DNA of 64,000 nt. It comes from Marinobacterium lutimaris (lineage in GTDB: Bacteria > Pseudomonadota > Gammaproteobacteria > Pseudomonadales > Balneatricaceae). The DNA is taken from assembly GCF_900108065.1 (NCBI RefSeq), contig NZ_FNVQ01000006.1, forward strand, positions 177,329 to 241,328. Reading direction: 5' to 3'. The notes under the pieces were generated by a model. The model saw only the letters and a list, made by a program, of their open reading frames with translations, made no database searches and was not told where the DNA came from. The position numbers were made by a program, and so were the translations under genes. Positions 16,054-38,168 of this stretch are shown here, one piece after another. The stretch's first letter is position 1; each line of letters starts with the position of its first letter.

Positions 16054-16467
16054 TTACTCTGGGGTGAGGGTGGTGAACTTGGGCTCCGGGCGGCTCCAGA
16101 GCCAGCTGGCGACCAGGATCATGCTGCTCATTGCCAGGCAGACCCAGAGACCGAAGCCCAGCGTCAGGGCCAGAATCAGACCGCTGAGCGCCATGCTCAG
16201 GCTGGCGAGCCATTTGGCCCGGCGCGGTACTGCGCGCTGTTCCTGCCAGTTTCTCAGGTGTTCGCCGTAAACCGGATGGTTGAGCAGCCAGTCGTGCAGC
16301 TGTGGCCAGCCCCGGGCGGCGGCCCAGAGGGCCAGCAGCAGAAAAACGGTGGTGGGCATGCCGGGCAGCACCGCGCCGATCATCCCCAGGGCCACGAACA
16401 ACAGGGCGAGCAGTCGCCACGCCAGCCTGATCAGCATCGACTCAGGCGCCGGCCGTTTTAGTGGCAT
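16054..16467 (-). CDS. YbaN/DUF454 family membrane protein, last gene of haem locus
   Basis: 137 residues with three to four hydrophobic helices. The sequence has the DUF454 core: GMIGAVLPGMPTTVFLLLAL, the cytosolic segment HDWLLNHPVYGEHLRNW and the RRAKWLA turn. Function is unknown. It lies 15 bases after haem oxygenase on the same strand, which suggests a link to haem or iron handling in the membrane. Confidence 0.85.
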   Translation of the reverse strand: MPLKRPAPESMLIRLAWRLLALLFVALGMIGAVLPGMPTTVFLLLALWAAARGWPQLHDWLLNHPVYGEHLRNWQEQRAVPRRAKWLASLSMALSGLILALTLGFGLWVCLAMSSMILVASWLWSRPEPKFTTLTPE

Positions 16468-16482
16468 TCTGTTCCAGAGGCA

Positions 16483-17094
16483 TCAGAGTTCCAAAGGCAT
16501 TAAAGTTTCGGCGTTGGCGAATACAAAGGCGAGCGCATTTTCCGCACCCTTCATCGCTTCACCGCGCTGCTCGTCGCTCAATGGCAGAGCATCCAGCTGC
16601 TGTTTGAAATTGAGCCAGTGGCGACCGCGGCCGTCGGCGTGACCGGCCAGATGTCGTGCACCCTTCTCCTCCGAGAGTCCCAGATCCTTCTTGGCGTGAC
16701 GCAGCAGGATAGCAGCGCCCAGGGATGAGCCCTGGTGGGCGTAAAGCCAGCCGATCGCCTCTGCATCGCTAATCGGATGAGAGTCAGCCGCCTGCTGACG
16801 GTCGCACTCGATCTGCTCGTCGGGCAGGGATAGATCGGCGCAGTCCTGCAGAATTGGCTCCAGCCTGCCGCGCTGCTCAAGATCCGGCAGCCACTGCTTG
16901 AGCTGCTCGCGCTGATAGAGCGAAGCGGTGGCGTAGTTCAGCCGCAGCTGCATACGCAGGAAGGGCAGATAGCGCTCGATAGCGCCAAAGGGCTCAAACT
17001 CCATGATGCGGCGGTCCAGCCGTTCATGGGTGCCGGAGGTGTGTGATTTCAGTGCCTCGCTCAGCGGCGCCTGGGCGGTTTGTGTCTGTTCCAT
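16483..17094 (-). CDS. hemO: Biliverdin-producing haem oxygenase
   Basis: 203 residues. The proximal-ligand segment THERLDRRIM places the haem-binding His near residue 23. The distal-helix glycine motif appears as GSSLGAAIL near 122-130, preceded by IGWLYAHQ. This matches bacterial HemO/PigA enzymes, which cleave haem to biliverdin, CO and Fe2+ in the cytosol using an external reductase. Its place downstream of the hemophore, Slam and receptor genes makes it the iron-release step of the haem-uptake pathway. An upstream GAGGAT supports the start. Confidence 0.93.
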   Translation of the reverse strand: MEQTQTAQAPLSEALKSHTSGTHERLDRRIMEFEPFGAIERYLPFLRMQLRLNYATASLYQREQLKQWLPDLEQRGRLEPILQDCADLSLPDEQIECDRQQAADSHPISDAEAIGWLYAHQGSSLGAAILLRHAKKDLGLSEEKGARHLAGHADGRGRHWLNFKQQLDALPLSDEQRGEAMKGAENALAFVFANAETLMPLEL

Positions 17095-17163
17095 CGGGTG
17101 ATCCTCGATCCATATCCTTGGGGTCTATATCTGATTAACGAACGAGGCGGGTCATATCCGTAA

Positions 17164-18546
17164 TCAGCCGGCCCGGTTTTCATCGCGAAGCGCCCGCAGC
17201 TGCTTGCGGTAACGCGACTTTTCACTGGCCTTGCCCCAGGCGTCGTAGAGCGTTATCAGGTTATTCAGCACCGTCTCCAGCGCCGCCGTATCGGCATTTG
17301 CCCGGCGCAGTAGCTGCAGGGATTGGACGAAATGGGGTTCGGCGTCGCTGTAGGCTTTTTGCTGATAGAGCAGGGCGCCGATACGGCCCTCGGTATTGCC
17401 ACGCTGGATAAGATCGGCGTTGCCTGACGCCTGCGCAGCGTCCTGCTTAGAGTCCTGCTCTGGCCCCGGCATCAGTGCCAGGCTCTGGCGGAAGTAGTCC
17501 AGCGCTTCGTCCCGCTGCTTTCTTATCTCACTGACAACACCCAGGTTGCCGAGGATCGCGGCCCGGGCGCTTTGGCTTTGCGCCGTCTCGCTGGCCCCGG
17601 TGTCGCCCAGCCGCTCCAGCCGGGCCAGAGCGTCTTGCAGCAGTTGCTCGGCCTTGTCGATTTCATCCTCTTTCGCTTCACCGCCCTGCAACATCGATTG
17701 CGCCTGCACATAGAGGTTGATCACGCCGGCCAGCGACAACTCGCCGGAGCGTTCGCGGATCTGCTGGGCCTCGGCACGCAGCGCGACGCTGTCCTGCTGC
17801 GGCAGCTGCTCTTCGATGAGCTGGGCCATCCGCTCCAGGGTCTCGGCGCGGCGGGTATCCTCTTCCGACAGGGTGTGGGACTCCCTGTCGCGCTGTTGCT
17901 CCAGCACGGCGAGCGCCTCACTGGCGGCGCCTCGGGCGCTGTAAAGCTGCGCCAACTGGTAGCTCAGCTGGCGCCGGTTTTCCTGAAAAGAGTTATAGAA
18001 GTCGCTCTCTGCCGAGGTCTCCAGCGCGCTGCGTGCGACCTCGATGGCTGCCTCGGGTTGACCCTGCTGCAGCAGCGCGCTTAACCCCAGTGCGCCCTGT
18101 AGCCGGGCTGCCATCTGCTCTGGGTGTTGCCGGTAGATCGCCAGCGCCTGGCGGTAGGCATCGATCGCTTTGTCCGTCTGGCCCGCGCTTTCAGCCAGGC
18201 CCGCCAGGTTCAGCAGCAGCCGGGCCTGGGCCACACTATCGCTGCCGCGGGCGCGCCCGTTCAGCACGAGTGCCCGCTGTTGGGTTTCCAGGGCGCTGTC
18301 GCTCTGGCCCTGCGCCATCTGTACATAGGCCAGCAGGCTCAGGCTTGCGGCCTCAAAGGCGGCGCCATTATCGGCCCTGCGTGCCCGGGCGATGGCGCGT
18401 TGCAGCAGGGTCTCGGCCTTGGCGTAGTCGCCGCCCTGGTAGGCGGCCTGTGCCTGCTGCTGCAGTGGCTGCCAGTTATCCGCAGCGTCGGCGTTGAGGC
18501 ACAGCAGTATCAGTAATGCGGCGAAAAAAGAGGTGCGAATCATCAT
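17164..18546 (-). CDS. Exported tetratricopeptide-repeat protein in the haem/Slam operon
   Basis: 460 residues. Residues 1-21 form a signal peptide (FFAALLILLCLNADA then ADNW). The rest is helical repeats with the TPR pattern, for example AYQGGDYAKAETLLQRAIA, QGQSDSALETQQRALVLNG, AGQTDKAIDAYRQALAIY, QRDEALDYFRQSLALM and AYSDAEPHFVQSLQLL. It is therefore a periplasmic helical scaffold. The start is two bases after the Slam stop codon, so the two are probably co-translated. I do not recognise a specific function. A chaperone for the hemophore or a Slam partner is inferred from context only. Confidence 0.85.
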   Translation of the reverse strand: MMIRTSFFAALLILLCLNADAADNWQPLQQQAQAAYQGGDYAKAETLLQRAIARARRADNGAAFEAASLSLLAYVQMAQGQSDSALETQQRALVLNGRARGSDSVAQARLLLNLAGLAESAGQTDKAIDAYRQALAIYRQHPEQMAARLQGALGLSALLQQGQPEAAIEVARSALETSAESDFYNSFQENRRQLSYQLAQLYSARGAASEALAVLEQQRDRESHTLSEEDTRRAETLERMAQLIEEQLPQQDSVALRAEAQQIRERSGELSLAGVINLYVQAQSMLQGGEAKEDEIDKAEQLLQDALARLERLGDTGASETAQSQSARAAILGNLGVVSEIRKQRDEALDYFRQSLALMPGPEQDSKQDAAQASGNADLIQRGNTEGRIGALLYQQKAYSDAEPHFVQSLQLLRRANADTAALETVLNNLITLYDAWGKASEKSRYRKQLRALRDENRAG

Positions 18547-18548
18547 GG

Positions 18549-20051
18549 TCAGAAGCGTTTTTCCAGTTTCAGGCTGACGCGGTTCTGGTCGTAGTTGTAG
18601 AGCCAGTCCACGTTGCTGTCGTTACTGCGGTGGGTGAGGTTCAGGCTGGGGTAGAAGCCGGCCAACTCAAGCCGCGGCGCTTTCAGGATCAGGGTGTAGT
18701 TCTGCTCGGTGTCACTGCGCTTCTCGCCGAGGATGGGGCTGTAGCTGGCGTACTCGCGCTGGCGCCGGGAAACCAGCAGGGTGGCATCGATACCGACGTC
18801 AAACTGCTTGGAGGCACCGACCCTGAGCCCCGGCTGGCGGTAGGCGTAGATCGATTCACTGGCCTGGCGATAGAGCCAGTCGACCCCGGCGAACAGCACC
18901 CAGTTGTCCGGCAGCTGATGCCAGTAGGTGGCGTTGGCCGAATAGGAGGGGCCGTTGTAATGGCGGTAGCGCTCGCTGCGGTAGTCCAGGTATTGGTACT
19001 CGCCCTCCAGCTTGAAAAACTGCGTCGGCGAGAGGTGGCGCATCCACTCCGCATGCAGGCCCCAGGCGCCGTAAAGGCTGTCGTTGGCGTAGCGCGAAAA
19101 CTCGAACGAGGGGGCGATGCGGATCTGGTCATCCAGATCCTGGTAGCGATAACCGAACTCTGCGGTCAGGGTGCTCTCGTCGTAGTCGGGCGTTTCCTCG
19201 TAGCTCTGGCCGTAAAGCAGCGAGCGGAAATAGACGCCGTGGTGGCCCGACAACGGCATCTGTTTGTTGAGCGTGGCCTCGTAATCGATCCCTGTCGATG
19301 TGACCGCATCCGGTATCCGGCGCTCGTAGAAACATTGGCCGGCGTAGGAAAGCAGGCAGGTGCGGCTTTCGGATGACTGGTTGAGGTTGTCGTTCCAGGT
19401 CGGTCCGAACGCGATGGAGCCGTTCCAGGCACGGCGCTGCGTCAGCGCGGCGCGAAAGTGCCCGACGGTGCTGCGTACGCCGTCCTGGCGCCTGTCCAGC
19501 GGATCCAGGCTGAGCTCTATCTGTTTGAACAGCGTCTCGGCCTCTGCATCCTTGTGGTTTTCAAACAGTATCCGTGCAAGCTCCAGGCGGGCGGGCAGAA
19601 AGCCGGGGTTCAGCTCCAGCAGGCGGCGATACTGCTGCTCGGACTCTTCCATATCGCCGCGCACCCGCGCCAGGGCGCCACGGGCGTAGGCCAGCAGCAG
19701 CGGGTCGGCGTTGGGCAGGGTTTCATACTCCTGCATAAAGGCGAGTACGGCGCTCCACTGCTTGCGCTGCAGCGACAGATAGATGGCGCGGCCCAGGTCG
19801 CTGGCGTTTTTACCCACGGAGTAGCGCTTGCCATCGATCACAAGTTGGGGCCGTTTGCCGGGCAGGTAGTCCTCATCGGCCAGCAGCTCACGTTCGGTCT
19901 CGCGGTTCTGGCGCTCGATGGACTGGTTCAGCCGCAGCTGGGTATCGAGATCGTCGGCCCAGACCGGAGTCAGGGGGCAAACGGCGATAAGGGCGGCGAG
20001 AGTGGCCGGTTTGCAGCTGCGGCAGATTGAAACTGGGAGCATGTTGATCAT
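18549..20051 (-). CDS. Slam (surface lipoprotein assembly modifier / type XI secretion) outer-membrane protein
   Basis: 500 residues. A signal peptide ends near VWA (32). Residues about 80-200 are TPR-like (WSAVLAFMQEYETLPNADPL, MEESEQQYRRLLELNPGFLP, KDAEAETLFKQIELSLDPLD), as in the Slam N-terminal domain. The rest is a beta-barrel (DUF560/Slam) that starts ISAF-like with AWNGSIAFGPTWNDNLNQSS and ends with aromatic LKLEKRF. Slam proteins move TbpB-like lipoproteins or soluble hemophilins across the outer membrane. The hemophilin-like gene immediately upstream is the obvious client. Confidence 0.9.
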   Translation of the reverse strand: MINMLPVSICRSCKPATLAALIAVCPLTPVWADDLDTQLRLNQSIERQNRETERELLADEDYLPGKRPQLVIDGKRYSVGKNASDLGRAIYLSLQRKQWSAVLAFMQEYETLPNADPLLLAYARGALARVRGDMEESEQQYRRLLELNPGFLPARLELARILFENHKDAEAETLFKQIELSLDPLDRRQDGVRSTVGHFRAALTQRRAWNGSIAFGPTWNDNLNQSSESRTCLLSYAGQCFYERRIPDAVTSTGIDYEATLNKQMPLSGHHGVYFRSLLYGQSYEETPDYDESTLTAEFGYRYQDLDDQIRIAPSFEFSRYANDSLYGAWGLHAEWMRHLSPTQFFKLEGEYQYLDYRSERYRHYNGPSYSANATYWHQLPDNWVLFAGVDWLYRQASESIYAYRQPGLRVGASKQFDVGIDATLLVSRRQREYASYSPILGEKRSDTEQNYTLILKAPRLELAGFYPSLNLTHRSNDSNVDWLYNYDQNRVSLKLEKRF

Positions 20052-20067
20052 CTATGCCATAACGCGG

Positions 20068-20095
20068 AAAAAGCCGGGCAGCAACGCTGCCCGGC
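20068..20095 (-). terminator. Rho-independent (probably partial) terminator between hemophore and Slam genes
   Basis: On the minus strand a perfect 10-bp stem GCCGGGCAGC / GCTGCCCGGC with a three-base loop is followed by TTTTT. It lies directly after the hemophore stop codon and before Slam. It would let the secreted protein be made in excess over the secretion machinery. Confidence 0.88.
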
Positions 20096-20122
20096 CCGGG
20101 ACACTGCGGTATTCAGCCGCGC

Positions 20123-20875
20123 TTACTGCTGGGAGCCACCGAAGGCGGTGTCAAAGTCGGTACCGGCAAAGTCTACGATGCCGGCGAGGTCCGCCTGGCC
20201 GTTGTAGAACTGGGCGGAGACTTCGCCGCCAGTGACCAGGCTGCCGTTGAAGTTACCGAAGGCACCATTGCCGCTGACAGACGCATCGTTGTTGATTGTG
20301 GCCGTTCCAATGGAAACCTGGGTGTTAGCGTTGGCCAGGGTTCCGGTCAGGGTGCTGGCGCCGAAATCGGCGGTGAACTGGCCGGACAGCGCGTTGCTAC
20401 CGCTGAAGTTGTTAAGGCCGGTTACGGCATAGGTAGCGGTGCCGGCGCTTGGTACAGCGGTATCCGCATTGGAGCCGGAGTAGTAGACGGTACGGGTGGC
20501 GTCGCTGTTGCCGTAGGCGGACCACTCACCGAACCAGACATCGCTGCTGCCCACCTGGGCGAAGTTGAATACGCCGAGGCTGTCATGATCTTCCGGCGCG
20601 CCGGAGTAGGGGAAGTTCAGGGTATAGACGCCGTTGGTTGGAGTGCCTCCGTACGAGGTAAGCCCGCCAAAGTCGACAAATTGATTGATGCCCGTGGAGT
20701 TTACGGCGACACCCGCCATTCCTGCCGTATGAGGCCCAAAAGGAACGGTGGATGCACTGATCGCTACGTTCGATGTATTGGTCGATCCCCCGACCACATC
20801 CGCCTGAACGGCACCGGCCAGTGCCAGGGAAGCCAGGGTCAGTGCAACTGCGTTTGCCAGTTTTAGCTTATGCAT
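20123..20875 (-). CDS. Secreted hemophilin-like hemophore, Slam-dependent
   Basis: 250 residues. A clean signal peptidase I site (GAVQA then DVVGG, after residue 25) and no lipobox Cys indicate a soluble secreted protein. The mature part is rich in Gly, Asn, Ser and Thr. Its C-terminal half (about 140-250) resembles the small TbpB-type beta-barrel handle of Slam clients, with FTADFGASTLTGTL, ATINNDASVSGNGAFGNF and GEVSAQFYNGQADLAGIVDF. Such proteins (hemophilin, HphA) bind haem outside the cell and hand it to a partner TonB receptor. The mature protein has only two histidines (49 and 97), candidate haem ligands. It sits between the receptor gene and Slam. Confidence 0.85.
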   Translation of the reverse strand: MHKLKLANAVALTLASLALAGAVQADVVGGSTNTSNVAISASTVPFGPHTAGMAGVAVNSTGINQFVDFGGLTSYGGTPTNGVYTLNFPYSGAPEDHDSLGVFNFAQVGSSDVWFGEWSAYGNSDATRTVYYSGSNADTAVPSAGTATYAVTGLNNFSGSNALSGQFTADFGASTLTGTLANANTQVSIGTATINNDASVSGNGAFGNFNGSLVTGGEVSAQFYNGQADLAGIVDFAGTDFDTAFGGSQQ

Positions 20876-20983
20876 GGTGTTACTCCTTTCAATTCCATTT
20901 AAGGTGTTGGATTACCACGATTGGTGAGCATCCCTGCTCGTTGCGGGCGCCGTGGCCGAGGCCCGCTCCCTGTTGAGCGGTCG

Positions 20984-23900
20984 TCAGAAACGGCCGGTCA
21001 AACTCAGTTTGATATTGCGTCCCGGGGCGGCCATGGCGGAGCGGGTCGCCGGGTCGACGTAGTACTGGTCGGTCAGGTTGGTGCCGGTCAGCTCTATATC
21101 CAGGTGTTTGTTCAGGTTAAAGCGGGCGTAGGCATCGAGAATCAGCGTTTCGCCCCAGCTGAACGGGATATTGTAGAAATAGACATAGCCTTGTTGGTCG
21201 GAGGCCAAAACAGCATGGTCGGTGTACCACTCCAGGTCTTCGTTCTCGTACCCCTTGTAGTAGGTGGCGCGCCCACCCAGCTCCAGGCGTCGGTCCAGGA
21301 AGCGTCCGCCCAGCTCCCAGTTGGCGGAGAACTCCGGCGTGGCCTGGGCCAGCAGGTAACCGTTGGGGAAGCCGTAGTCAAAGCAGCGCGGCACCAGGTC
21401 GTTATTACCCCACCAGTTCATGTTGCCTGATGCCGATGCGGCGCTGTCCTCGTCGCAGACCTGGTTTTCCAGGTTGTAGTTAAGCCCCAGGCTGGTAAAG
21501 AAGCGGCCGTTGTCGTAGCGGCCGCTCAGCTCGATACCGCGGATCAGCTGCTTGTCGATATTGTTGAACCGGAAGCGGTCGTCCCGCTCGATCACGTCGC
21601 GGGTCAGGTTGTGGTAGTAGGCCAGCTTGATATCGGCGTACTCGGCGCTGGGCAGCCACTGGGTCAGGTCGTGCACATAGGCCAGCTCCCAGTTGTAGGC
21701 GTGTTCCGGCTCCACCCCCCAGGGGGTGAGCGAGGCGGAAAACGCCATGGTGCTCTCGAACATGCTGGGAAAGCGCAGGGTCTCGCTGTATTTCAGGTAG
21801 GCACGGCTGTAGTCGTTAAAGCGGTAGCTGACACCCCAGTGAGGCACCCAGCCGTGGTCCTTGCGCTTCTTGTCTTCGGCGGTCACGATTTCGCTTACTG
21901 CTTGGGTTTCGCAAGAGACCACATGCTCGCCGCTGACCTGGCCGTTGAGGCAGGGGTTACCGGCGTAGCTGTAGTTGCCGTCGGAATCGGGCTCCCAGGT
22001 GCCACCGTCGCTGGTGACCGTTCGTGAGGTTTCGATAGTTTCGGCGACTCTAGCCGCCTCCTGGTCGAACTGCTCCTGCGTAATCCAGCCCAGGTCTAGC
22101 ATTTGTTGGAGGCCGGTAAGGCCTCTATCGATCGCGCTTTGAATCTCCTCCTGACTGAGCGGAATCTCCTCCCGGTAGGTCACATTGGAGTATTTACTGT
22201 ATATCGAATTAAATTCGCCCGGGTTGTTGGCGATCAGATCATCGCGGGCCCAGTAGCCGGAGAAGGTCAGGCCGCCATTGAGGCGCAGCCTATCCGTGGG
22301 GCGCCAGGCGAAGTCGAAGTTGGTCTGCCACTCTTCGCGCCGGCCGGCGCGGGGCAGCATGCGCCAGTTGTCGTTGGCGTCGGGGTTATAGCGGTCATCG
22401 GAGCCCAGATCCTCATGCTGGAAGCGTCCGCCCAGGGTCAGGTCCAGGCTGTCGCTGAGCGTGATCTTGTTGCTGACCGTAACGCCGTCGCGGGTATGCT
22501 GGGCGTTAATCAGTGCGGTATTTCTCAGCAGCGGGTCGCCGTCATACTCAAAACTGGTGTAGTTGGGGTAGCCACCGGCACTGTAAGTGTCGCTGACGGT
22601 GTCGGTGCGCCAGAGGTTCAGGTGAAAGTCGAGCCAGTCGTTATCCTGGGGTTTGTAGCGGTACTCCAGGTTATACGCCTTGGCGTCCACCTTGCTCTCC
22701 GGCCACTGGATGGCGCCCTTGTCTTCTGAACGACTGATCCGCGAGGGCATGATCTCGCCGTAGTGGCTGGTGCTGTCGCGGTAGTTGAAGCTTAGCTCTT
22801 CATCATCGGCAATATGCCAGGTGGTCTTGAACAGCCAGGACTCCATGGTGCTGGAGGTATTCGCGACCTCATCGCCCGGTTTCCAGTACCGCGCCAGGTT
22901 GACGATGTAGTCCTTGTCTTCGGTTCGCTCGGGGTTGTCGTAGTAATCGGCGTTGTTGCGCCCGGAAAAGTAGTTGCCGCGTTCGCGGTAGGCGTAGGCG
23001 GCGAGTACGTCGAACTGCTCTCCCTTGCGGGCGGCGGCAAAGCGGTAGGCGTAATCCTCACCGTTAAGAGGGTTGGCATCGCGGGAGGACTTGGACTCCG
23101 GGTCGATCACCAGTGTCTGGTCATTGTAAGGGTTTGCCATTTCCCCCCATTCCTGCGGGTAGCCCTCCACGGTGCGATAATCCTCGCCGGTGTGCAGACT
23201 CGGCAGCCGCGGTGAGGTGGCGTTGCCGCTGCCCTCTACCATCAGCTCCACGCCAAACTCTTCGCCCTCCCGAATAATGTCGTCCGGCTGCAGGGTGGTT
23301 ACCGTCATGGCGCCGCCGACGCCGCTTTTTACGTCGCGTTCGTTGACGGCGCCCTGGTAGATGGTCATGCCGCCGATCAGGCTGGGGTCGATGTAGTTAC
23401 GGTTGGTGGCGCCGTTGTAGCCGCGGGAGACGGTGATCGCCTGTTCGGTACCGTCGATGGTGACCGGCACCCGGCCAGGGCCCTGGATACCGCGGATGTT
23501 CAGATCGATGGCGCCGCTGTTGCGTGCCTCGCCACTGAAGACGCCGGGCACGCCCTGCAACAGATCTGAGGGGTTGGTGCCCTTGTAACGCTCGATTTCA
23601 ACCTTGCCGAGGTAGCTGGTGGAGGTGTCCTTGTCATAAACATCGTTATGGCCCTGTACGTCGCGGCTGAAGCCGTTGGCGCCATAGTCGGTGATATTGA
23701 TGGTGGAGAGGTTGGCGGCGTCTTCGCTGAGCTGGGCGGTGACCATGTAGCTGCCATCAGCCTGGCGCTGGGCGATCAGCGCGGTACCGGCAAGCAGCTG
23801 GTTAAGGCCGCTGTCGATGCTGTAGTGCCCCAGCAGTGCGCTGCTTCTCAGCCCCTGGGTGGTGCTGGCGTCAAAGTAGATTTCGATGCCGGTTTGCAGG

Positions 23901-24151
23901 GCAAAGCGGTTCAGCGCTTCATCCAGCGCCCCCGCCGGGATGTCGATCTCGCGCTGCTGCACCGAAACAGGCTGGCTTGCGGCTTCGTCGGCGGCGAAAG
24001 CCGGGGCCGCCAGGCTCAGGGTGGCCAGGTGCACCGCGAGGATCAGCGGCTTGATCGCCGGCCGACGAGGCGCAATGGCCGGAACCGCCCGGCGGGTTGA
24101 AGACGGCGTCACAACGGTTTGTGGGTGAGAAGCTCTGTTTACCGACTGCAT
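20984..24151 (-). CDS. TonB-dependent haem/hemophore receptor with N-terminal STN signalling domain
   Basis: 1055 residues, large for a receptor. A signal peptide with a long n-region ends near APAFA (53). An STN domain (about 68-140, IDIPAGALDEALNRFALQTG) interacts with the anti-sigma factor FecR. The plug follows (QGVPGVFSGEARNSGAIDLN), then a 22-strand barrel ending IKLSLTGRF. The segment ETLRFPSMFE followed by EPEHAYNWELA is in the place of the FRAP-NPNL region of haem receptors. It is transcribed with the hemophore 108 bases downstream and resembles the HphR receptor layout. Import of haem from the hemophore into the periplasm is the likely role. Confidence 0.88.
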   Translation of the reverse strand: MQSVNRASHPQTVVTPSSTRRAVPAIAPRRPAIKPLILAVHLATLSLAAPAFAADEAASQPVSVQQREIDIPAGALDEALNRFALQTGIEIYFDASTTQGLRSSALLGHYSIDSGLNQLLAGTALIAQRQADGSYMVTAQLSEDAANLSTINITDYGANGFSRDVQGHNDVYDKDTSTSYLGKVEIERYKGTNPSDLLQGVPGVFSGEARNSGAIDLNIRGIQGPGRVPVTIDGTEQAITVSRGYNGATNRNYIDPSLIGGMTIYQGAVNERDVKSGVGGAMTVTTLQPDDIIREGEEFGVELMVEGSGNATSPRLPSLHTGEDYRTVEGYPQEWGEMANPYNDQTLVIDPESKSSRDANPLNGEDYAYRFAAARKGEQFDVLAAYAYRERGNYFSGRNNADYYDNPERTEDKDYIVNLARYWKPGDEVANTSSTMESWLFKTTWHIADDEELSFNYRDSTSHYGEIMPSRISRSEDKGAIQWPESKVDAKAYNLEYRYKPQDNDWLDFHLNLWRTDTVSDTYSAGGYPNYTSFEYDGDPLLRNTALINAQHTRDGVTVSNKITLSDSLDLTLGGRFQHEDLGSDDRYNPDANDNWRMLPRAGRREEWQTNFDFAWRPTDRLRLNGGLTFSGYWARDDLIANNPGEFNSIYSKYSNVTYREEIPLSQEEIQSAIDRGLTGLQQMLDLGWITQEQFDQEAARVAETIETSRTVTSDGGTWEPDSDGNYSYAGNPCLNGQVSGEHVVSCETQAVSEIVTAEDKKRKDHGWVPHWGVSYRFNDYSRAYLKYSETLRFPSMFESTMAFSASLTPWGVEPEHAYNWELAYVHDLTQWLPSAEYADIKLAYYHNLTRDVIERDDRFRFNNIDKQLIRGIELSGRYDNGRFFTSLGLNYNLENQVCDEDSAASASGNMNWWGNNDLVPRCFDYGFPNGYLLAQATPEFSANWELGGRFLDRRLELGGRATYYKGYENEDLEWYTDHAVLASDQQGYVYFYNIPFSWGETLILDAYARFNLNKHLDIELTGTNLTDQYYVDPATRSAMAAPGRNIKLSLTGRF

Positions 24152-24226
24152 AGGAAGCCCTTATTTCTTCGTCGCTGTTATCAGGTCTATACCCTTCACA
24201 CCGAACGAGCCGATAAGAACCGTAAT

Positions 24227-24245
24227 CTAAATGATAATTATTTTT
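24227..24245. promoter_or_regulatory. Candidate Fur box upstream of the haem receptor
   Basis: The 19-base segment CTAAATGATAATTATTTTT matches about 13 of 19 positions of the GATAATGATAATCATTATC consensus, with an intact AATGATAAT core. It lies about 75 bases upstream of the receptor start, where Fur-Fe2+ would repress it. Confidence 0.65.
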
Positions 24246-24401
24246 AAATGGGCGCTGGTTAGCGAATGAAACAGAGCGGAACAGATAGCGAAAGAGAGAG
24301 TTAAGCGGGTGCCGACGCTGTTATTGCGGCTGTCGCAGAAGGGGTAGGTAGCGTTACGTCTGTGAGCTCAGAGACCCCAGCCCACACCACCTGCAGGGGC
24401 G

Positions 24402-25340
24402 TCAGGCGTGGGAAACGTTGACCAGAAAAGGGGTCAGGTAGGTGATGCTGACCGGCAAAATACGGCTTAGCTGATCCAGGGCGCGGTCGGTATCCCGAAC
24501 CGAGAAAACGCCACTGACCTTGAGCTGGTTCAGCGCCGGGTCTACTCGCAATATGCCGCTGCGATAGCGCGCCAGTTCATGGATAAACCGGTCTACCGGC
24601 ATCTGCTCGGCCACCAGCCGGCCCTCTGTCCAGGCGCTGGTGTCGGCGCTGGCGGCAACGGGGGCAGTAATGCTGGTGCCGATCAGCCGGGTGCTCTGCC
24701 CCGGGGACAGCGCCAGGCTGCTGCCGGCCGCGGAAATCAGCCGGGCGGAGCCTTGATAAAGCTCGATTCGGGTCTGCTGTTCGCTACGGTAAAGATCAAG
24801 CCGCGCCGGCCCCGCGGTTTCCAGGGAGCCCTCGGCGGTGAGAATCCGGAACGGGGTCTGCGCCTGGTTTGCCACCAGCATGATCTGCCCCTGTTGCAGC
24901 CGGATCAGGCGTTGCCGGGCATCGATATCGAGATCCAGTTCGGTGGCGGTGTTGATATTCAGCTCGCTGCCGTCGCTGAGGAAGAGGTGGCGGATCTCGC
25001 CGGTGGCGGTGGCCAGGTGGTTATCGCCTGCCGAACGCGGCAGGTGACCGGTTCCGTCCAGGCCGAGTACACCGGCACCGAGCCCGAGCCCCGCCAGGCT
25101 GAGAAACTTGCGTCGTGACAGCCGGCGGCTGCGGCCCAGCACCCGTGCCCCGGCACCTGCCGGCAGGCCGTCAAACCTTGACTGCGCCTGCTGCAGGCAC
25201 TGCCAGGCGCGTTCATTCTCGGCGCTGGCCTGGCGCCATCGCAGGCAGGCCTGCTCGTCGGCGTCGGTGGCATCTTCCGACCAGAGTCGCGCCATCCAGT
25301 CGGCGGCCTGGGCGATCTGATCCCGGGAAAGGCGGCTCAT
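24402..25340 (-). CDS. FecR-family anti-sigma factor of the haem locus
   Basis: 312 residues from the ATG at 25340, with GAGGGAGG just upstream; a longer frame to 25370 is not needed. The N-terminal DUF4880 region (AADWMARLWSEDATDADEQA and WRQASAENERAWQ) binds the sigma factor. A Tat-like or membrane segment (RRKFLSLAGLGLGAGVLGL) crosses the inner membrane. The FecR domain (GEIRHLFLSDGSELNINTAT) is periplasmic. The C-terminal STN-like part (HELARYRSGILRVDP) meets the receptor's signalling domain. The start overlaps the sigma stop by four bases (ATGA), so the two are co-translated. Confidence 0.92.
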   Translation of the reverse strand: MSRLSRDQIAQAADWMARLWSEDATDADEQACLRWRQASAENERAWQCLQQAQSRFDGLPAGAGARVLGRSRRLSRRKFLSLAGLGLGAGVLGLDGTGHLPRSAGDNHLATATGEIRHLFLSDGSELNINTATELDLDIDARQRLIRLQQGQIMLVANQAQTPFRILTAEGSLETAGPARLDLYRSEQQTRIELYQGSARLISAAGSSLALSPGQSTRLIGTSITAPVAASADTSAWTEGRLVAEQMPVDRFIHELARYRSGILRVDPALNQLKVSGVFSVRDTDRALDQLSRILPVSITYLTPFLVNVSHA

Positions 25341-25870
25341 GGTTCCTCCCTCAGGCTGGCAGTGAGGCATACCTGCAGCGCCCGGGCGACATACTTCTCC
25401 ACCGATGAGACGGAAACACCCAGCTGTTCAGAGATCTCCCGGTAACTCAGGCCATCGACCCGGCGCAGCAGAAAGGCGCGACGCGCCTTGTCGGGCAGGC
25501 TGTGCAGCAGGGTATCGGCTTCAATCAGCGCATCGATCAGCTGCAGCTGATCTTCCGGTGACTGCACGAACTCCTCGGGCCTCAGCGCCAGTTCCTCGAG
25601 ATAGGCCTGTTCGATCCGCTTGCGGCGGAAATGATCCACCACCAGCCCCTTGGCGATGCGGGTCAGATAGGGGCGGGCGTAGTCGGAATCGGGCAGCCTG
25701 CCGCTGACCAGCAGGCGCAGATAGGTATCCTGCAGCAGATCCGCCGCCTGCTGGGAGCAGCCGAGGCGTTTGCGCAGGAAGCTCGACAGCCAGCCCTGGT
25801 GCTCCCGGTAGAGGTGCTCCAGCTGCTGTTCCTGGCGGAGGGTCAATGTTGAAGAACTCATTGCATCCAT
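25337..25870 (-). CDS. ECF sigma factor, FecI family, haem locus
   Basis: 177 residues from the ATG at 25870; 25861 (MSSS) is an equally good alternative. The longer frame to 25945 would run through the Fur box and is rejected. Region 2 is seen in YREHQGWLSSFLRKRLGCSQ and ADLLQDTYLRLL, and region 4 in YREISEQLGVSVSSVEKYV. FecI-type sigmas transcribe the receptor operon when the loaded receptor signals through FecR. A Fur box lies 12 bases upstream of the start. Confidence 0.92.
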   Translation of the reverse strand: MDAMSSSTLTLRQEQQLEHLYREHQGWLSSFLRKRLGCSQQAADLLQDTYLRLLVSGRLPDSDYARPYLTRIAKGLVVDHFRRKRIEQAYLEELALRPEEFVQSPEDQLQLIDALIEADTLLHSLPDKARRAFLLRRVDGLSYREISEQLGVSVSSVEKYVARALQVCLTASLREEP

Positions 25871-25881
25871 GCGAGAAGTCA

Positions 25882-25900
25882 AATGATAATGGTTATTATT
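25882..25900. promoter_or_regulatory. Fur box upstream of the haem-locus ECF sigma gene
   Basis: AATGATAATGGTTATTATT is a near-palindrome built from GATAAT-type hexamers, about 13-14 of 19 matching the Fur consensus in either register. It lies just before the sigma start, so iron limitation should induce the sigma/anti-sigma pair. Confidence 0.78.
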
Positions 25901-25993
25901 ACATTCTGTGGCTCTCGACATTGGCTTGTCAATGCATCGCTGCAAACTGGTAACAGTTTTTAATCAAGTTTAATGCTGGCTGGACGCCGGCTG

Positions 25994-26068: not shown

Positions 26069-26887
26069 CTACATATTTTTGATATAAGCAGCCATTTCAG
26101 GTGAGATGCGTTCCATATCCAGCTTTTTCTGCACGATTTCACCGGTTTTTGTTTCCACCGTCAGCCACAGGCCATCGTCCAGCTTGGCCGAGGGGGGGAT
26201 CATGATATCCACCTCTTTCTCCGGGCCCCGACGGCCGAGGAAGACGTTACCGGCGGCCCTCAGTGAGCGCGGTTTGCGGATCTTCAGGTAGGCGTTGCGG
26301 ATCTCCGAGTCACATTCCGCGCAGAAGCGAATAACGAACTTTTTCATCGGCACATCGATGATATCGGTGCGCGGCGGTTCCTGGTAACGCTGCGCCAGGG
26401 AGAAACTCCAGGGTCCGATACTGTCGTGCAGCGCGTCCGCCCGCAGCAGTGGCCGGGTCGGCGTATCGAGCATCTGAACGGCGAACGCCGCCACCGGAAC
26501 CAGCAGCAGGATGCCTGCTATCAGGGCTTTCACTGGACTGCGCTTGTCCGCGCCGGCGGACTGGGATTCTCTGGCGGGTGCTTTAACGGCCGGGTGCGGC
26601 TCTCGCCTTGGCAGTGCCTCTCGTCTTGGCAGATAAAACGCCAGCAGCAGGCCGGCGACCATCAGCCAGGCGACCCAGGTAACGGCGCCCACATCGGCGC
26701 GCCACTGCCAGGCGCAGAAAGCGAACGCCAATAGCAGGGTGATCCAGCCGCCGCTGCGCACCAGCCGACTGGCTTTGCTGGACAGCGCGCGTCCAAACAG
26801 CTGGCGTTGGTGGTTCGGCATCGATGCGGCCAGCAGGGTAAAGGCGAGAATAACCAACAATGCGGTGATCAGATGGCCCCAGCTCAT
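26069..26887 (-). CDS. DUF3325-like membrane protein with an extra periplasmic CxxC domain
   Basis: 272 residues. The first about 90 form three hydrophobic helices matching DUF3325 (MSWGHLITALLVILAFTLLA, then NHQRQLFGR), a small iron-locus family. A charged linker and a fourth helix (about 118-138) lead to a C-terminal domain of about 130 residues with the motif CAEC (Cys189, Cys192). DUF3325 proteins are usually about 100 residues from memory, so this is a fusion or extension. It overlaps DUF3649 by four bases (ATGA). The context is an FpvG-like reductase operon, and the CxxC could bind metal or act in redox chemistry. That role is inferred. Confidence 0.75.
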   Translation of the reverse strand: MSWGHLITALLVILAFTLLAASMPNHQRQLFGRALSSKASRLVRSGGWITLLLAFAFCAWQWRADVGAVTWVAWLMVAGLLLAFYLPRREALPRREPHPAVKAPARESQSAGADKRSPVKALIAGILLLVPVAAFAVQMLDTPTRPLLRADALHDSIGPWSFSLAQRYQEPPRTDIIDVPMKKFVIRFCAECDSEIRNAYLKIRKPRSLRAAGNVFLGRRGPEKEVDIMIPPSAKLDDGLWLTVETKTGEIVQKKLDMERISPEMAAYIKNM

Positions 26888-27216
26888 GCGATACCTCCCA
26901 GCAGCCAGATCAGGCCGACGCAGAGCAAGGTAGAGATCAGCAGACCGGCGCAGACATTTCGCAGGCGCTTAACACTGAAGATCCAGATAACCACGGCGAC
27001 ATAGACCAGAAAGCTCAGCATGGTCGATGCTGCCAGCGCCTGGGCCTTGGGCAGCGGCCATACCAGTGCCAGCAGTATCAGAATGGCAGAGGTCAGAATG
27101 TAGCCGCCCACCAGGGCCAGCAGTACCCGGGCGGTAACCGCCAGCCGGTAACGGATACCACTGCTTGCAGTAGTGCGCGCAGTGGAAGAGCGTTGAGGGA
27201 TTGAGCTCGTCGGCAT
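26884..27216 (-). CDS. DUF3649 family small membrane protein
   Basis: 110 residues. A basic cytosolic N-terminus is followed by three hydrophobic helices (VLLALVGGYILTSAILILLAL, MLSFLVYVAVVIWIFSV, LLISTLLCVGLIWLL). The pattern fits DUF3649, a family found between PepSY proteins and DUF3325 in iron-transport operons. It overlaps both neighbours (one base with the PepSY stop, four with DUF3325), so all three are translationally coupled. It may form a complex with the PepSY protein, comparable to the small partners of Pseudomonas FpvG. Confidence 0.78.
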   Translation of the reverse strand: MPTSSIPQRSSTARTTASSGIRYRLAVTARVLLALVGGYILTSAILILLALVWPLPKAQALAASTMLSFLVYVAVVIWIFSVKRLRNVCAGLLISTLLCVGLIWLLGGIA

Positions 27217-28847
27217 CAGTGCGCCTCCCTGGCAGCTGCTGCCACCCGCGGTTGCTGTTCGACGGCGGTTGCCTTCTGCGGGCTTGGCAGCCAGCGCTTG
27301 CGTACCTTGATGCCCATGTAGGCAAACAGGGCGCCGAGACCTAAGAAGGTCAGGTCGACACCGGCCAGGGCCCAGTCGCCCCGGGCCAGGGTGTTACCCA
27401 GGTGAATGTCGGTGGTGAGCAGGTTCAGCAGCGGCAGCAGCGCGAAGGCGGCGCTGGCGAAAAACAGCAGCTCGACCCAGGCGCGACGGGTATCGCGCAG
27501 CAGACCGTAGAGCAAGGCCTCGCCAAAGATCAGGAACAGGCAGTGAACCTCCCAGGCGCTGCGATCCGCCATATCCAGCGGCAGCAGACGGTTGGCCCAG
27601 AAGTAGCCGGCAACCCCGGCGGGCAGGCCGACGATGGTGGCCAGGTTCAGCGCTTCCACCAGGCGATGACCCAGGTTGCTGTCGCCTTGATTGCGCTTGC
27701 GCCGCTTTACGCTCCACAACACCATGCCGGTGCCGATCATGGCGCAGCCGAGCAGGCCGGAGAAGAAGTAGAGCCAGCGCAGCCAGGGGCCGGCGAAGAT
27801 CCCTTCATGCAGGGCGCGCAGGGTTTCGTTGGTGAGCATGGTGGCGTTCAGGGGGGGATCGCTCGGCAGCGGCGAGCCATCGGCGGCATCGAAGCGCAGG
27901 ATCTGGCGCTCGTAACGCACCTTGTCACCGGCCACGCGTTCGATATCCACGTGCTGGGGCTGGCCCTGCAGATGCTCGACACGGATAGAGGCGACCTGGC
28001 CTTCACCCCAGCGCTCTTCCGCGGTGCTGAGCATGGTTTCGATATTGGCGGCGGGGCGGGTGACCGCCAGGTAGACATCGCCCTCGCGCTCGGTCAGCTC
28101 ATCGAAGAAGGCACGGGCGGCGGGACGGTCGGTGCCGTAGAGAGTGGCGATGCCGGCCGGCATGTACTGGGCGGCAAAGAACACCAGGCCGCTGTAGGTG
28201 ATCATCAGAAAGAACGGCAGCGCCATGACGCCACAGAGGTTGTGCGCGTCGAGCCAGCTGCGCCGGTTCTTGTTGGGCCTGAAGGTGAAGAAGTCCTTGA
28301 AGATCTTTTTGTGGATCACCACCCCGGTGATCAGCGCCAGCAGCATCAGCAGGGTGCAGAGCCCGACCAGGCGGATCCCCACCGGGTAGGGCATGTAGCT
28401 GAGTGCGTAGTGCATGCTGTAGAGCTGCAAACCGCCGCCGGTCTGGCGCACCTCCACCGGCGGCAGCGGCGCGGCGGTTTCGGTGCTGAGGGTTTCCCGG
28501 CCGCGCAGGCCAAACGCCTGGCCGCGCTTGGGCAGGTCCTGCCAGCCCAGGGTGAAGTCGTGCCAGCCGCGCGGCGTCAGCGAGGCGTGGGGCAGGGTGA
28601 CCACCCAGTTCTGCGCCTCGGGCGCCACCTTTTGCAGCCGGTCCAGGGCGGTGTTTATCAGCTGTTCGCGGTCGCCGCTGAGGCTCTGCTGCACCGGCAG
28701 CGGGCGTTCCGGCTCCATCCAGCGGGTGATCTCGTCATCGAAATAGCCGGAGGTGCCGGTCACGAAGACGAAAAAGAGGATCCAGCCAGCGATTAGGCCG
28801 GTCCAGGTGTGTAGCCAGGCCATGCTCTGTCGAAAGCTCTCTTTCAT
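27216..28847 (-). CDS. PepSY-domain inner-membrane protein, FpvG/PiuB-like iron reductase candidate
   Basis: 543 residues from the ATG at 28847, where MKESFRQSMAWLHTWTGLIAGW begins the classic PepSY_TM start; the frame to 29006 is an artefact of the upstream repeat. There are several membrane helices with histidines at their ends (LHTWTGL, DAHNLCGVMALPF, LHEGIFAG), the likely haem or metal ligands. Periplasmic PepSY loops lie between them. Pseudomonas FpvG of this family reduces siderophore-bound Fe3+ in the periplasm. Here it follows a siderophore receptor and precedes DUF3649 and DUF3325, consistent with that job. Confidence 0.88.
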   Translation of the reverse strand: MKESFRQSMAWLHTWTGLIAGWILFFVFVTGTSGYFDDEITRWMEPERPLPVQQSLSGDREQLINTALDRLQKVAPEAQNWVVTLPHASLTPRGWHDFTLGWQDLPKRGQAFGLRGRETLSTETAAPLPPVEVRQTGGGLQLYSMHYALSYMPYPVGIRLVGLCTLLMLLALITGVVIHKKIFKDFFTFRPNKNRRSWLDAHNLCGVMALPFFLMITYSGLVFFAAQYMPAGIATLYGTDRPAARAFFDELTEREGDVYLAVTRPAANIETMLSTAEERWGEGQVASIRVEHLQGQPQHVDIERVAGDKVRYERQILRFDAADGSPLPSDPPLNATMLTNETLRALHEGIFAGPWLRWLYFFSGLLGCAMIGTGMVLWSVKRRKRNQGDSNLGHRLVEALNLATIVGLPAGVAGYFWANRLLPLDMADRSAWEVHCLFLIFGEALLYGLLRDTRRAWVELLFFASAAFALLPLLNLLTTDIHLGNTLARGDWALAGVDLTFLGLGALFAYMGIKVRKRWLPSPQKATAVEQQPRVAAAAREAH

Positions 28848-28874
28848 GATCTGAATGACCGCCCTGGTTAAGTG

Positions 28875-28910
28875 ATGAGTCTGAATATGAGTTTGAATAT
28901 GAGCCTGAAA
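28875..28910. repeat. Three 12-bp tandem repeats upstream of the PepSY gene
   Basis: Units ATGAGTCTGAAT, ATGAGTTTGAAT and ATGAGCCTGAAA are contiguous in the leader between the TonB receptor and the PepSY gene. They produce the false His-Ile-Gln-Thr repeats of the longer frame. Confidence 0.8.
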
Positions 28911-28916
28911 CAGACG

Positions 28917-28956
28917 CAGACCAGCCGCCCGTGGACAGGCCCGGGCGGCTGGTCTG
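28917..28956. terminator. Strong hairpin between the TonB receptor and PepSY genes
   Basis: A perfect 15-bp stem (CAGACCAGCCGCCCG and its complement) with a 10-base loop. The T tract (ATCTTTTTATC) is on the plus-strand side, while both flanking genes are read on the minus strand, where only a weak T-rich stretch follows. It may terminate or attenuate receptor transcripts, stabilise their 3' ends, or stop antisense transcription. Confidence 0.6.
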
Positions 28957-29099
28957 GATCTTTTTATCAGTCCTGGGGAGATCGTTGAGCGGCCATAGCC
29001 GGCCAAAGATTCCGCTGTTCTCTATCTATGACGAACGAGAGGGACAAAAGGGGAAAGCCCGGCGGCAATTTTTTATCCCCTTGTGCTTATGCGTGCCGA

Positions 29100-31541: not shown

Positions 31542-31648
31542 GACTACTCCTGAGCTGTCACCGTTAGGTTTCTGGCAGATTTTGAAATCTGCTTTACAGC
31601 CTTAAACGGACAGCCGCCGGAAAGGGGAAGGCGTTCGGTAAAAAATCG

Positions 31649-32656
31649 TCAGTGAGTGTTTGCTTCGAGCCTAACCCACCAGGGCATGCGTCTGTTGATG
31701 CGCAGCGGCAGGCTGTCCGCCAGCATGGCCAGGGCGTGATCCGGGTTGTCCGCCGGGAAGGAGCCGACCACGCGCAGATCGGCGATGGCTGGATCCAGGC
31801 CCAAGTGGCCGTGACGATAGCGGCGCAGCTCCTCCACCAGCCGTGACAGCGGTATGTTGTCCGCCAGGATCAGGCCCGAGGCCCAGGCACGGTGAGCGGG
31901 GTTGGCTGCCTCGGGAGGGTCGATCTGCTGCGCTGAAAAGCGAGTCTGCTGGCCGGCATCGATGCGCTGCCGCTCGCCTTGCTCGGTAGTGATCTCAACC
32001 GCGCCTTCAAACACCGCCACATAGGTTTCATCCTCATTGCGGCGCACGCTGAAGCGGGTGCCCAGCGCCCGCAACTGGCCCTGCTCGGTGGTGATCAGGA
32101 AAGGACGGTTCAGGGTGTCGTGGTAGCCGGTCTGTACCTGGAGTTCGCCGCGCTGCAGATGGATCCTGCGAACCTCGGCCTGATAGTCGATCTTCAGAGC
32201 GCTGTCGGTATTGATCCAGAGAGTGCCGCCGTCGGTTAGCGCGAGTTTGCGGATCTCGCCGATGCCGCTGCTTTCATCGCTGTTGATCCGGGCGTAAAGC
32301 CGCTCGCTGTAGTCGGAGAGCGGCGAGTAGCGCCAGGCCAGCAGGGCGCCAAAAACCGCCAGCCCGGAGCCCAGTACCCGACGCCGGCTGCTGCTCTTGG
32401 AGCGAGAGGCACCGAGAATGCGGCGGGATTCTTCACTGCTGGTCTGCTCGGCAACCTGATGGAAGCGCTTACTAACCTGCTCTACATACTGCCATGCGAT
32501 GCGGTGCTGAGGGCTGCTATCGAACCATTGCTGCCAGGCCTGACGATCGCCGTTGCTGCACTGGTCATCACTGAGCAGCGCGAACCACTCGGCCGCCTCC
32601 TCCAGGGTTTGATGATCGGGCTTGGCGGTGCTGGGCGAGGGGGAATGTGCCGGCAT
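31649..32656 (-). CDS. FecR-family anti-sigma factor, second iron module
   Basis: 335 residues. DUF4880 region at the N-terminus (LEEAAEWFALLSDDQCSNGD, then RIAWQYVEQVSKRF), a membrane segment (RRRVLGSGLAVFGALLAW), the periplasmic FecR domain (GEIRKLALTDGGTLWINTDS; RALGTRFSVRRNEDETYVAV) and the C-terminal receptor-contact part (LVEELRRYRHGHLGLDP). It shares one base with the upstream sigma gene and lies 107 bases before the receptor gene, completing a FecI-FecR-receptor cassette. Confidence 0.93.
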   Translation of the reverse strand: MPAHSPSPSTAKPDHQTLEEAAEWFALLSDDQCSNGDRQAWQQWFDSSPQHRIAWQYVEQVSKRFHQVAEQTSSEESRRILGASRSKSSSRRRVLGSGLAVFGALLAWRYSPLSDYSERLYARINSDESSGIGEIRKLALTDGGTLWINTDSALKIDYQAEVRRIHLQRGELQVQTGYHDTLNRPFLITTEQGQLRALGTRFSVRRNEDETYVAVFEGAVEITTEQGERQRIDAGQQTRFSAQQIDPPEAANPAHRAWASGLILADNIPLSRLVEELRRYRHGHLGLDPAIADLRVVGSFPADNPDHALAMLADSLPLRINRRMPWWVRLEANTH

Positions 32657-33189: not shown

Positions 33190-33239
33190 GATCGGTCTGG
33201 TCGCCTGGGGCGAGTTATTATTGTTTAAAGATACGAAAT

Positions 33240-33264
33240 GATAACCATTATCATAATCGTTATC
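33240..33264. promoter_or_regulatory. Overlapping Fur boxes in the divergent FecI / iron-ABC promoter
   Basis: A run of GATAAC-CATTATC-ATAATCG-TTATC hexamers gives at least two overlapping 19-base Fur sites within 25 bases. It lies 51 bases from the sigma start (33189) and about 210 bases before the FpvJ-like gene, so it can repress both directions when iron is plentiful. It is the best Fur site in the window. Confidence 0.85.
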
Positions 33265-38142: not shown

Positions 38143-38168
38143 AGATAAAACCAACTAACGATATTTGT

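What the first reader, a model, noticed from the sequence alone, without database searches (positions are those of the whole stretch)
16054..25900. Complete hemophilin/Slam (type XI) haem-acquisition locus in one operon-like block
The order FecI, FecR, STN TonB receptor, soluble hemophore, Slam, TPR protein, haem oxygenase, YbaN covers sensing, capture, secretion, import and haem breakdown. The layout resembles the Acinetobacter hphA/hphR/Slam/hemO region (established knowledge, recalled). Here it carries an added TPR protein and a DUF454 membrane protein. Signal peptide type, DUF560 barrel and haem oxygenase motifs are visible.
Basis: partly seen in the sequence, partly recalled or inferred. 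Interest (0 to 1): 0.8.

Follow-up and report, generated by a model that had tools for sequence, protein, structure and literature searches.

The report
Marine haem-scavenging locus with TPR partner
A bacterium of the genus Marinobacterium carries one gene block encoding a close relative of known secreted haem-grabbing proteins, its predicted exporter, a receptor and a haem-degrading enzyme, which likely lets it take iron from haem; a predicted periplasmic repeat protein sits where Acinetobacter carries the energy protein TonB, and a natural hybrid in a related bacterium suggests which half of the haem-grabber the exporter reads.

Summary
Confirmed: eight minus-strand genes, FecI-FecR-receptor-HphA-Slam-TPR-haem oxygenase-DUF454, at 16054-25870. 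The hemophore carries both hemophilin domains, no cysteine, and only two mature histidines (H49, H97), aligned with the haem ligands of A. baumannii HphA; its model best matches solved hemophilins. It is a new member of a known kind, with two corrections. DUF454 is not added: annotated A. baumannii loci have the same order. TPR is not simply added: it fills the slot that holds TonB in Acinetobacter and ExbB/ExbD/TonB in Vibrio. The TPR family is conserved: in 116 family genomes the same 7 carry HphA and TPR. Its role is open and the evidence split: a receptor/TonB-side adaptor is my first choice, a Slam-side chaperone nearly equal. The most useful result came from relatives: a Marinomonas locus is a natural mosaic, with HphA barrel and most of Slam foreign while haem-binding handle, receptor and TPR are Marinomonas-type. 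Across 16 loci, and without the mosaic, barrel distances follow Slam and handle distances follow the receptor. No haem binding, secretion or uptake was tested.

The parts
25337..25870 (-). FecI-type ECF sigma factor (start at 25870 or 25861 inferred; listed frame opens at TTG 25945)
   Evidence: FecI-type models match below their cut-offs; start inferred from Fur-like site
25885..25903 (.). Fur-like site upstream of fecI, 15 of 19 to the consensus
   Evidence: best score in 500 shuffles of a 250-bp stretch: 95th percentile 12, maximum 14
24402..25370 (-). FecR-type anti-sigma/sensor, twin-arginine-like segment at residues 84-104
   Evidence: TAT model 15.9 bits, below its 16.7 cut-off
24227..24245 (.). 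weaker Fur-like site upstream of the receptor gene, 13 of 19
   Evidence: 13 is the 99th percentile of the shuffles
20984..24151 (-). TonB-dependent haem-type receptor with N-terminal STN signalling domain, nearest solved relative HasR
20123..20875 (-). hemophilin (HphA) hemophore, 250 aa, signal peptide (by eye), no cysteine
20489..20809 (-). HphA_N handle domain, residues 23-129 (haem binding by homology)
20129..20461 (-). HphA_C barrel domain, residues 139-249 (predicted Slam-recognition part)
20729..20731 (-). codon of His49, predicted axial haem ligand
   Evidence: His in 22 of 22 aligned homologues; 27 of 28 rows
20585..20587 (-). codon of His97, predicted axial haem ligand
   Evidence: His in 22 of 22 aligned homologues; 28 of 28 rows
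18549..20051 (-). Slam (T11SS outer-membrane translocon family), N-terminal TPR_Slam plus SlipAM barrel
17164..18546 (-). predicted periplasmic TPR superhelix protein, 460 aa, starts 2 nt after the Slam stop; in the TonB slot
16483..17094 (-). haem oxygenase, nearest solved relative HemO 1j77 (Neisseria, recalled)
16054..16467 (-). DUF454/YbaN membrane protein, last gene also in annotated A. baumannii hemO loci

Best explanation
The block encodes a hemophilin-family hemophore, a Slam-family translocon, a HasR-like signalling receptor with FecI/FecR, a TPR protein, a haem oxygenase and DUF454, and it likely works as an iron-regulated haem-scavenging system in which the hemophore would be exported by Slam, bind haem with His49 and His97, and hand it to the receptor. 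Inferred steps: Fur would release fecI when iron is short; the STN domain of a loaded receptor would signal through FecR to FecI; Slam would recognise the C-terminal barrel of the hemophore and the receptor its N-terminal handle; the receptor would be powered from elsewhere by the genome's ExbB-ExbD-ExbD-TonB set; haem oxygenase would free the iron. The TPR protein is most likely a periplasmic protein-binding adaptor on the receptor/TonB side (about 0.38 for that role alone, hardly above the Slam-side rival; the locus reading itself is about 0.9). Shown here: gene content, domains, conserved ligand positions, predicted folds, synteny, co-occurrence and the mosaic locus. Not shown: any binding, secretion, signalling or uptake.
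For: Domains. Hemophilins are the top solved relatives by sequence (8gmm 6.1e-39) and by fold (8gmm, 8gm3, 7re4 first; model pLDDT 87.9). The only mature His residues, 49 and 97, are His in 22 of 22 aligned homologues and align with A. baumannii residues 42 and 105 of L110; PMC8560813 names H43 and H106 as the ligands, the same spacing of 63 (passages). No Cys, so not a lipoprotein. Receptor nearest HasR. Same order in two annotated A. baumannii records with TonB in place of TPR. TPR family and HphA in the same 7 of 116 family genomes. Barrel distances follow Slam, handle distances follow the receptor, in 16 loci and without the mosaic. Mosaic locus L033. For the receptor side of TPR: TonB slot; L081, with receptor, TPR and DUF454 but no HphA or Slam; TPR of L033 stayed Marinomonas-type while Slam did not; TtpD2, a TPR protein essential for TonB2 iron uptake in Vibrio vulnificus, as a functional precedent (PMC6957404, passages).
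Against: No haem-binding, secretion or growth data. Against the TPR role chosen: its gene starts 1-2 nt after Slam in 12 of 14 measured loci; without the mosaic locus its distances follow Slam more than the receptor (partial r 0.74 against 0.48); in L081 and L020 the TPR proteins are sisters while the receptors are not (L081's receptor groups with L016), so TPR and receptor do not always travel together; it is not closer to TtpD2 than to an unrelated TPR protein (E 2.3e-9 against 9.4e-21); Methylophaga has both TPR and a TonB set at its locus, so TPR is not a strict replacement. The genome with L081 also holds HphA and Slam on another contig (L015), so TPR could act on them in trans.
Confidence: 0.8

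Rival explanations
1. The TPR protein is a periplasmic holdase or docking chaperone that keeps the hemophore unfolded and presents it to Slam.
For: Gene starts 1-2 nt after the Slam stop in 12 of 14 measured loci. Slam transport of TbpB needs the periplasmic holdase Skp (PMC9090332, passages). Without the mosaic locus, TPR distances follow Slam more than the receptor (0.74 against 0.48); in L020 both TPR and Slam, but not the receptor, group with L016. Model is a superhelix like the peptide-binding domains of LGN and OGT (their peptide binding is recalled).
Against: In mosaic L033 a Marinomonas-type TPR stands beside a foreign barrel and Slam. L081 has receptor-TPR-DUF454 without HphA or Slam at that locus. 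TPR fills the TonB slot.
Confidence: 0.36
2. The TPR protein is a periplasmic haem or porphyrin carrier, like the TPR-like hemophore HusA, bridging the receptor and the inner membrane.
For: [quoted passage not shown] No other periplasmic haem carrier is among the eight genes. Three Tyr (36, 394, 434) are invariant in the 12-row family alignment.
Against: No His, Met or Cys is invariant in that alignment; HusA does not appear among the 50 listed fold rows of either search, which is not decisive.
Confidence: 0.1
3. The secreted protein has moved to another ligand (other porphyrin or metal) while keeping the hemophilin fold.
For: Ligand never tested; no host is known to me for this strain.
Against: Both axial His kept in 22 of 22, haem oxygenase in the same block, HasR-like receptor.
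Confidence: 0.05

Closest known systems
Acinetobacter baumannii hemO cluster (ECF sigma, anti-sigma, hphR, hphA, hsmA, TonB-related, haem oxygenase, YbaN)
   Same: Seven of eight genes of the same kind in the same order and strand (PMC10483418 table passage, which calls the last gene hypothetical)
   Different: TPR protein in place of TonB; HphA about 40% identical
Hemophilins with solved structures: S. maltophilia 8gmm, V. harveyi 8gm3, A. baumannii 7re4
   Same: Handle plus barrel, both axial His aligned to A. baumannii, top sequence and fold matches
   Different: 37-45% identity over the structural alignment; ligand binding untested here
Vibrio TonB2 accessory protein TtpD2 (TPR, 425 aa)
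   Same: TPR protein of similar size in an iron-uptake operon; essential there (PMC6957404, passages)
   Different: Not specifically related by sequence; no TonB among the genes here
HasR/HasI/HasS hemophore signalling
   Same: STN-type HasR-like receptor with FecI/FecR beside a hemophore
   Different: Hemophore is HphA-type with a Slam gene instead of type I secretion (Has details recalled)

Membership tests
Hemophilin (HphA) | HphA_N and HphA_C domains | tested here: met
   139.5 and 166.5 bits, cut-offs 22 and 31
Hemophilin (HphA) | two axial His at the A. baumannii ligand positions | tested here: met
   ligand identity from PMC8560813 (passages)
Hemophilin (HphA) | soluble, not lipidated | tested here: met
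   no Cys in the protein; signal peptide read by eye
Hemophilin (HphA) | hemophilin fold | tested here: met
   the first eight rows are hemophilins
Hemophilin (HphA) | haem binding and hand-over | not testable with these tools
   needs purified protein
Slam / type XI secretion | SlipAM (DUF560) barrel with N-terminal Slam TPR | tested here: met
Slam / type XI secretion | secretes its neighbouring cargo | not testable with these tools
   needs secretion assay
Acinetobacter hemO-type locus | FecI-FecR-receptor-HphA-Slam, then haem oxygenase-DUF454 | tested here: met
Acinetobacter hemO-type locus | TonB between Slam and haem oxygenase | tested here: not met
   TPR there; the three TonB_C matches of the genome lie on other contigs
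HasR-type signalling receptor | STN domain and HasR as nearest solved relative | tested here: met
   STN 27.8 bits, cut-off 28.4, just below; signalling domain also matches 2m5j
TtpD2 (TonB2 accessory) | closer to TtpD than to unrelated TPR proteins | tested here: not met
   hhalign 2.3e-9 against 9.4e-21 for control P0007; one control only
HusA (TPR-like hemophore) | porphyrin binding in a TPR-like fold | tested here: inconclusive
   HusA not in the listed fold rows; binding not testable

The most novel reading that the evidence does not exclude
Hemophilins are two-part keys: the C-terminal barrel is the Slam export pass and the N-terminal handle the receptor key, and marine bacteria recombine the parts naturally; in one branch of these loci a dedicated periplasmic TPR protein has taken TonB's place as a required component that couples the receptor to housekeeping TonB.
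Probability: 0.3. Interest if true: 0.72.

Novelty: new variant of a known kind. Interest (0 to 1): 0.5.

Why it matters
Slam substrates have been predicted to be recognised through the barrel, with the authors asking for further experiments (PMC5449769, passages). The mosaic locus L033 and the barrel/Slam versus handle/receptor pattern are natural evidence for that, with a junction to copy in a bench test on hemophilins of these marine genera. The TPR family adds an untested, conserved partner gene to a haem-uptake system that the papers I saw studied in host-associated bacteria, and asks how such receptors are energised where no TonB is encoded beside them.

Tried and rejected
DUF454 and TPR as 'additions': rejected for DUF454, reworded for TPR. 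TPR as a member of TtpD2: not supported by the control comparison. TPR as a strict TonB replacement: weakened by Methylophaga, which has both, and by G203 and G015, which have no TPR after Slam and no TonB_C match on the hph contig. TPR tied to one TonB type: rejected; of the TPR genomes looked at, G000, G364, G146, G767, G768, G769 and G770 have an ExbB-ExbD-ExbD-TonB set, G390 and G771 a TtpB/TtpC-type set (not every TonB place was fetched). TPR always travelling with the receptor: rejected by L081/L020. TPR on plasmids: no match at 1e-10. Protein search with A1: 10 proteins at E<=1e-20, of which 4 (415-619 bits) stand apart; only 7998 candidates were scored, and the Marinomonas members were not listed, so this is no count of the family. 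Tandem hemophilins of G667 as a test of handle/barrel divergence: uninformative, 52% and 53%. Two 2024 J. Bacteriol. papers on hemophilins (PMC11332172, PMC11332152; titles seen in a reference list) are not held, so they may already describe Slam-cargo specificity or the TPR gene.
Full report
OBSERVATION. The window belongs to a 5.57 Mb, 21-contig genome. A genome of the same genus (G328) has its hemophilin on a 258,106-base contig, the size of the Marinobacterium mangrovicola DSM 27697 contig that carries the closest named relative, 92% identical; so the window is Marinobacterium (marine habitat recalled). Eight genes run head to tail on the minus strand from about 25870 to 16054, with the family assignments. 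This genome has one Slam and one HphA_N match.

THE HEMOPHORE. The 250-residue protein matches HphA_N and HphA_C over nearly their full lengths. Its best solved relatives are hemophilins, by sequence and by AlphaFold2 model: pLDDT 87.9, first eight Foldseek rows all hemophilins, TM 0.73-0.77 by query length. It has three His, at 2, 49 and 97, and no Cys. H49 and H97 are His in 22 of 22 aligned homologues; in an earlier set they were kept in 27 of 28 and 28 of 28 rows, duplicates included. They align with residues 42 and 105 of the A. baumannii protein in L110; PMC8560813 (passages) names H43 and H106, the same spacing with an offset of one.

REGULATION AND UPTAKE. The receptor's nearest solved relative is HasR (5e-35), with the HasR signalling domain also matched; its STN match is just below Pfam's cut-off (27.8 against 28.4 bits). 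Fur-like sites lie before fecI (15 of 19) and before the receptor (13 of 19). Of 11 other loci scanned before their listed fecI start, 8 have a site of 15-16 of 19, L033 only 12, L023 and L031 none of 12 or more; L023's listed start is extended like the window's. Haem oxygenase is closest to HemO 1j77. TonB_C matches in this genome are three, none on the window's contig: an orphan TonB, an ExbB-ExbD-ExbD-TonB set, and a TolA-like gene near TolQ- and TolB-like genes (names read by eye). The ExbB-ExbD-ExbD-TonB set is the likely energiser.

THE TonB SLOT. Two annotated A. baumannii records read sigma factor, FecR/DUF4880, receptor, hemophore, Slam, TonB, haem oxygenase, YbaN/DUF454 (in one the Slam is called porin family protein); a published table agrees but calls the last gene hypothetical (PMC10483418, passage). 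In PMC8560813 (passages) the TonB-related protein was among four genes used to rebuild uptake in E. coli. In the window the TPR gene stands in that slot. Among the distinct hemophilin loci collected, TPR follows Slam in 15: window, L016, L018, L020, L022-L029 and L031-L033 (L013, L019 and L021 are second copies of L028, L023 and L029). Four Vibrio loci (L036-L039) have ExbB/ExbD-like genes and TonB there, the TonB confirmed by PF03544 at matching places. Pseudoalteromonas L034, L035 and KG3 have FecI-FecR after Slam, and in KG3 a convergent YbaN-haem oxygenase-TonB-ExbD-ExbB group follows. No TPR was seen after Slam at L015 (G156), G203, G015, G667 or G544; L030 is cut before the slot. The family has no match at E<=1e-10 anywhere in the four Vibrio and two Pseudoalteromonas genomes, G203, G667 or G544; G015 has weak ones to 51 bits. 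Of nine TPR genomes searched for TonB_C, one (Methylophaga) has a TonB at the locus.

THE TPR FAMILY. A 12-row alignment (A1) shows one family with 49 invariant columns. In the window's family, 7 of 116 genomes have HphA and 7 of 116 have the TPR family, the same seven. In an order sample of 293, HphA is in 6 and TPR at E<=1e-20 in 5 (at most 5 candidates scored in most genomes): four strong matches, all in HphA genomes, and one weak (79 bits) in G182, which lacks HphA but has this short TPR frame near a FecI-FecR-receptor set. Two of the six HphA genomes (G203, G015) have no TPR match there. Fisher values (2e-11; 5e-8 using the four strong) treat related genomes as independent and overstate the case. 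In the class sample, 12 of 369 genomes match at E<=1e-15, but outside the window the best is 122 bits, against 541 for the window; at most 4 candidates were scored per genome. The model (pLDDT 87.5) is a TPR superhelix nearest LGN, Pins and OGT domains; the fold shows no function.

SLAM SIDE OR RECEPTOR SIDE? For Slam: TPR starts 1-2 nt after Slam in 12 of 14 measured loci, 9 and 25 nt in L016 and L020 (L018 counted, L022 not, as its frames are broken). In L020 both TPR and Slam group with L016 while the receptor does not. For the receptor: the TonB slot; L081, where receptor-TPR-DUF454 stand without HphA or Slam while another contig of that genome has receptor-HphA-Slam without TPR; and mosaic L033. 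But L081's TPR is sister to L020's while its receptor is sister to L016's, so there TPR and receptor have different histories. Distance matrices are split: with ten TPR loci TPR follows the receptor (partial r 0.87 against 0.28 for Slam), without L033 it follows Slam (0.74 against 0.48 for the receptor). On the Slam tree (23 rows) and the receptor tree (21 labelled rows) the TPR label needs two changes each. I put the receptor side at 0.38 and the Slam side at 0.36.

A NATURAL DOMAIN SWAP. In Marinomonas sp. TW1 (L033), FecI, FecR, receptor and TPR are 94, 85, 87 and 83% identical to the best other Marinomonas locus; the HphA handle is 97% identical to M. profundimaris (L028). The best breakpoint falls at window residue 137, between HphA_N (ends 129) and HphA_C (starts 139). 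In 200-column DNA windows identity returns to Marinomonas near the end of slam; in the first part of slam identity to both donors is similar, so the fine structure is unresolved. Trees agree: for Slam, one Marinomonas clade with L033 is rejected (AU p 8e-61) and L033 groups with L020 and L016 (100/100); for TPR and receptor that grouping is rejected (8.6e-9, 3.9e-52) and L033 sits with Marinomonas (87/98, not starred, and 100/99.9). The groups were chosen after seeing the identities. The hybrid frame is intact on one 77 kb contig; I could not check reads.

COVARIATION. Sixteen loci with readable HphA, Slam and receptor were used. Left out: near-copies (L013, L019, L021, L023, L026, L035, L037, L039, L111, L112), loci with a missing, cut or broken gene (L014, L015, L018, L022, L030, L032), the upstream hemophilin of L083, and the most distant ones (L084, L085). 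Barrel distances follow Slam once the receptor is held (0.64; the receptor given Slam -0.24) and handle distances follow the receptor (0.67; Slam given the receptor -0.08), with the same sign in all 16 leave-one-out runs. Without L033 the pattern stays: 15 loci, barrel 0.53-0.56 against -0.15 to -0.16, handle 0.62-0.63 against -0.20 to -0.26, 0 of 2000 permutations as large; thinned to 12 and 11 loci, 0.33-0.43 and 0.63-0.64, 1 to 5 of 2000 (two printed labels there understate the set sizes by one). Permutations do not remove shared ancestry. M. rhizomae (L032) looks like the opposite case: handle 40%, barrel 72% to L024; its receptor is off the contig.

KNOWN OR NEW. The locus is a new member of the hemO-type hemophilin/Slam kind, in a variant with TPR in TonB's slot. 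Barrel recognition by Slam was predicted in PMC5449769 and called putative in PMC12282271 (passages). In the papers I searched or saw in passages I met no mention of this TPR gene, but the two most relevant 2024 papers are not held.

Noticed in passing
window 26069-33264: A second FecR (31649-32656) plus STN-type TonB receptor (29100-31541) with PepSY_TM (27216-29006) and DUF3325 (26069-26887) proteins next door, and three overlapping Fur-like sites at 33234-33264 (best 16 of 19).
   Followed up: partly
window 34445-42351: A ZnuABC-type zinc importer with a second ZnuA-like frame (37042-38142), then a third FecR-receptor pair (38848-42351): this stretch looks like an iron/zinc uptake island.
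   Followed up: no
L033 10001-12377: Natural mosaic: Marinomonas handle fused to a foreign hemophilin barrel with foreign Slam.
   Followed up: yes
L032 98-949: M. rhizomae hemophilin with divergent handle (about 40%) on a Marinomonas-type barrel (about 72%); receptor not on the contig.
   Followed up: partly
L081 8104-14811: FecI, FecR, receptor, TPR and DUF454 without HphA or Slam, in a genome whose HphA-Slam pair lies on another contig; its TPR is L020-like but its receptor L016-like.
   Followed up: partly
L083 9536-11115: Two tandem hemophilin genes are followed by one Slam.
   Followed up: partly
L016 15978-17558: A second, distant Slam lies about 6 kb from the hemophilin gene of G146.
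   Followed up: no
L110, L111 and hit H7: hemO loci sit on records labelled A. baumannii plasmids of 288 kb to 4.09 Mb; the largest is chromosome-sized, so some of these labels may be wrong.
   Followed up: no
P0001: A TPR-family protein (619 bits) is named in a source as from an Osedax symbiont genome.
   Followed up: no
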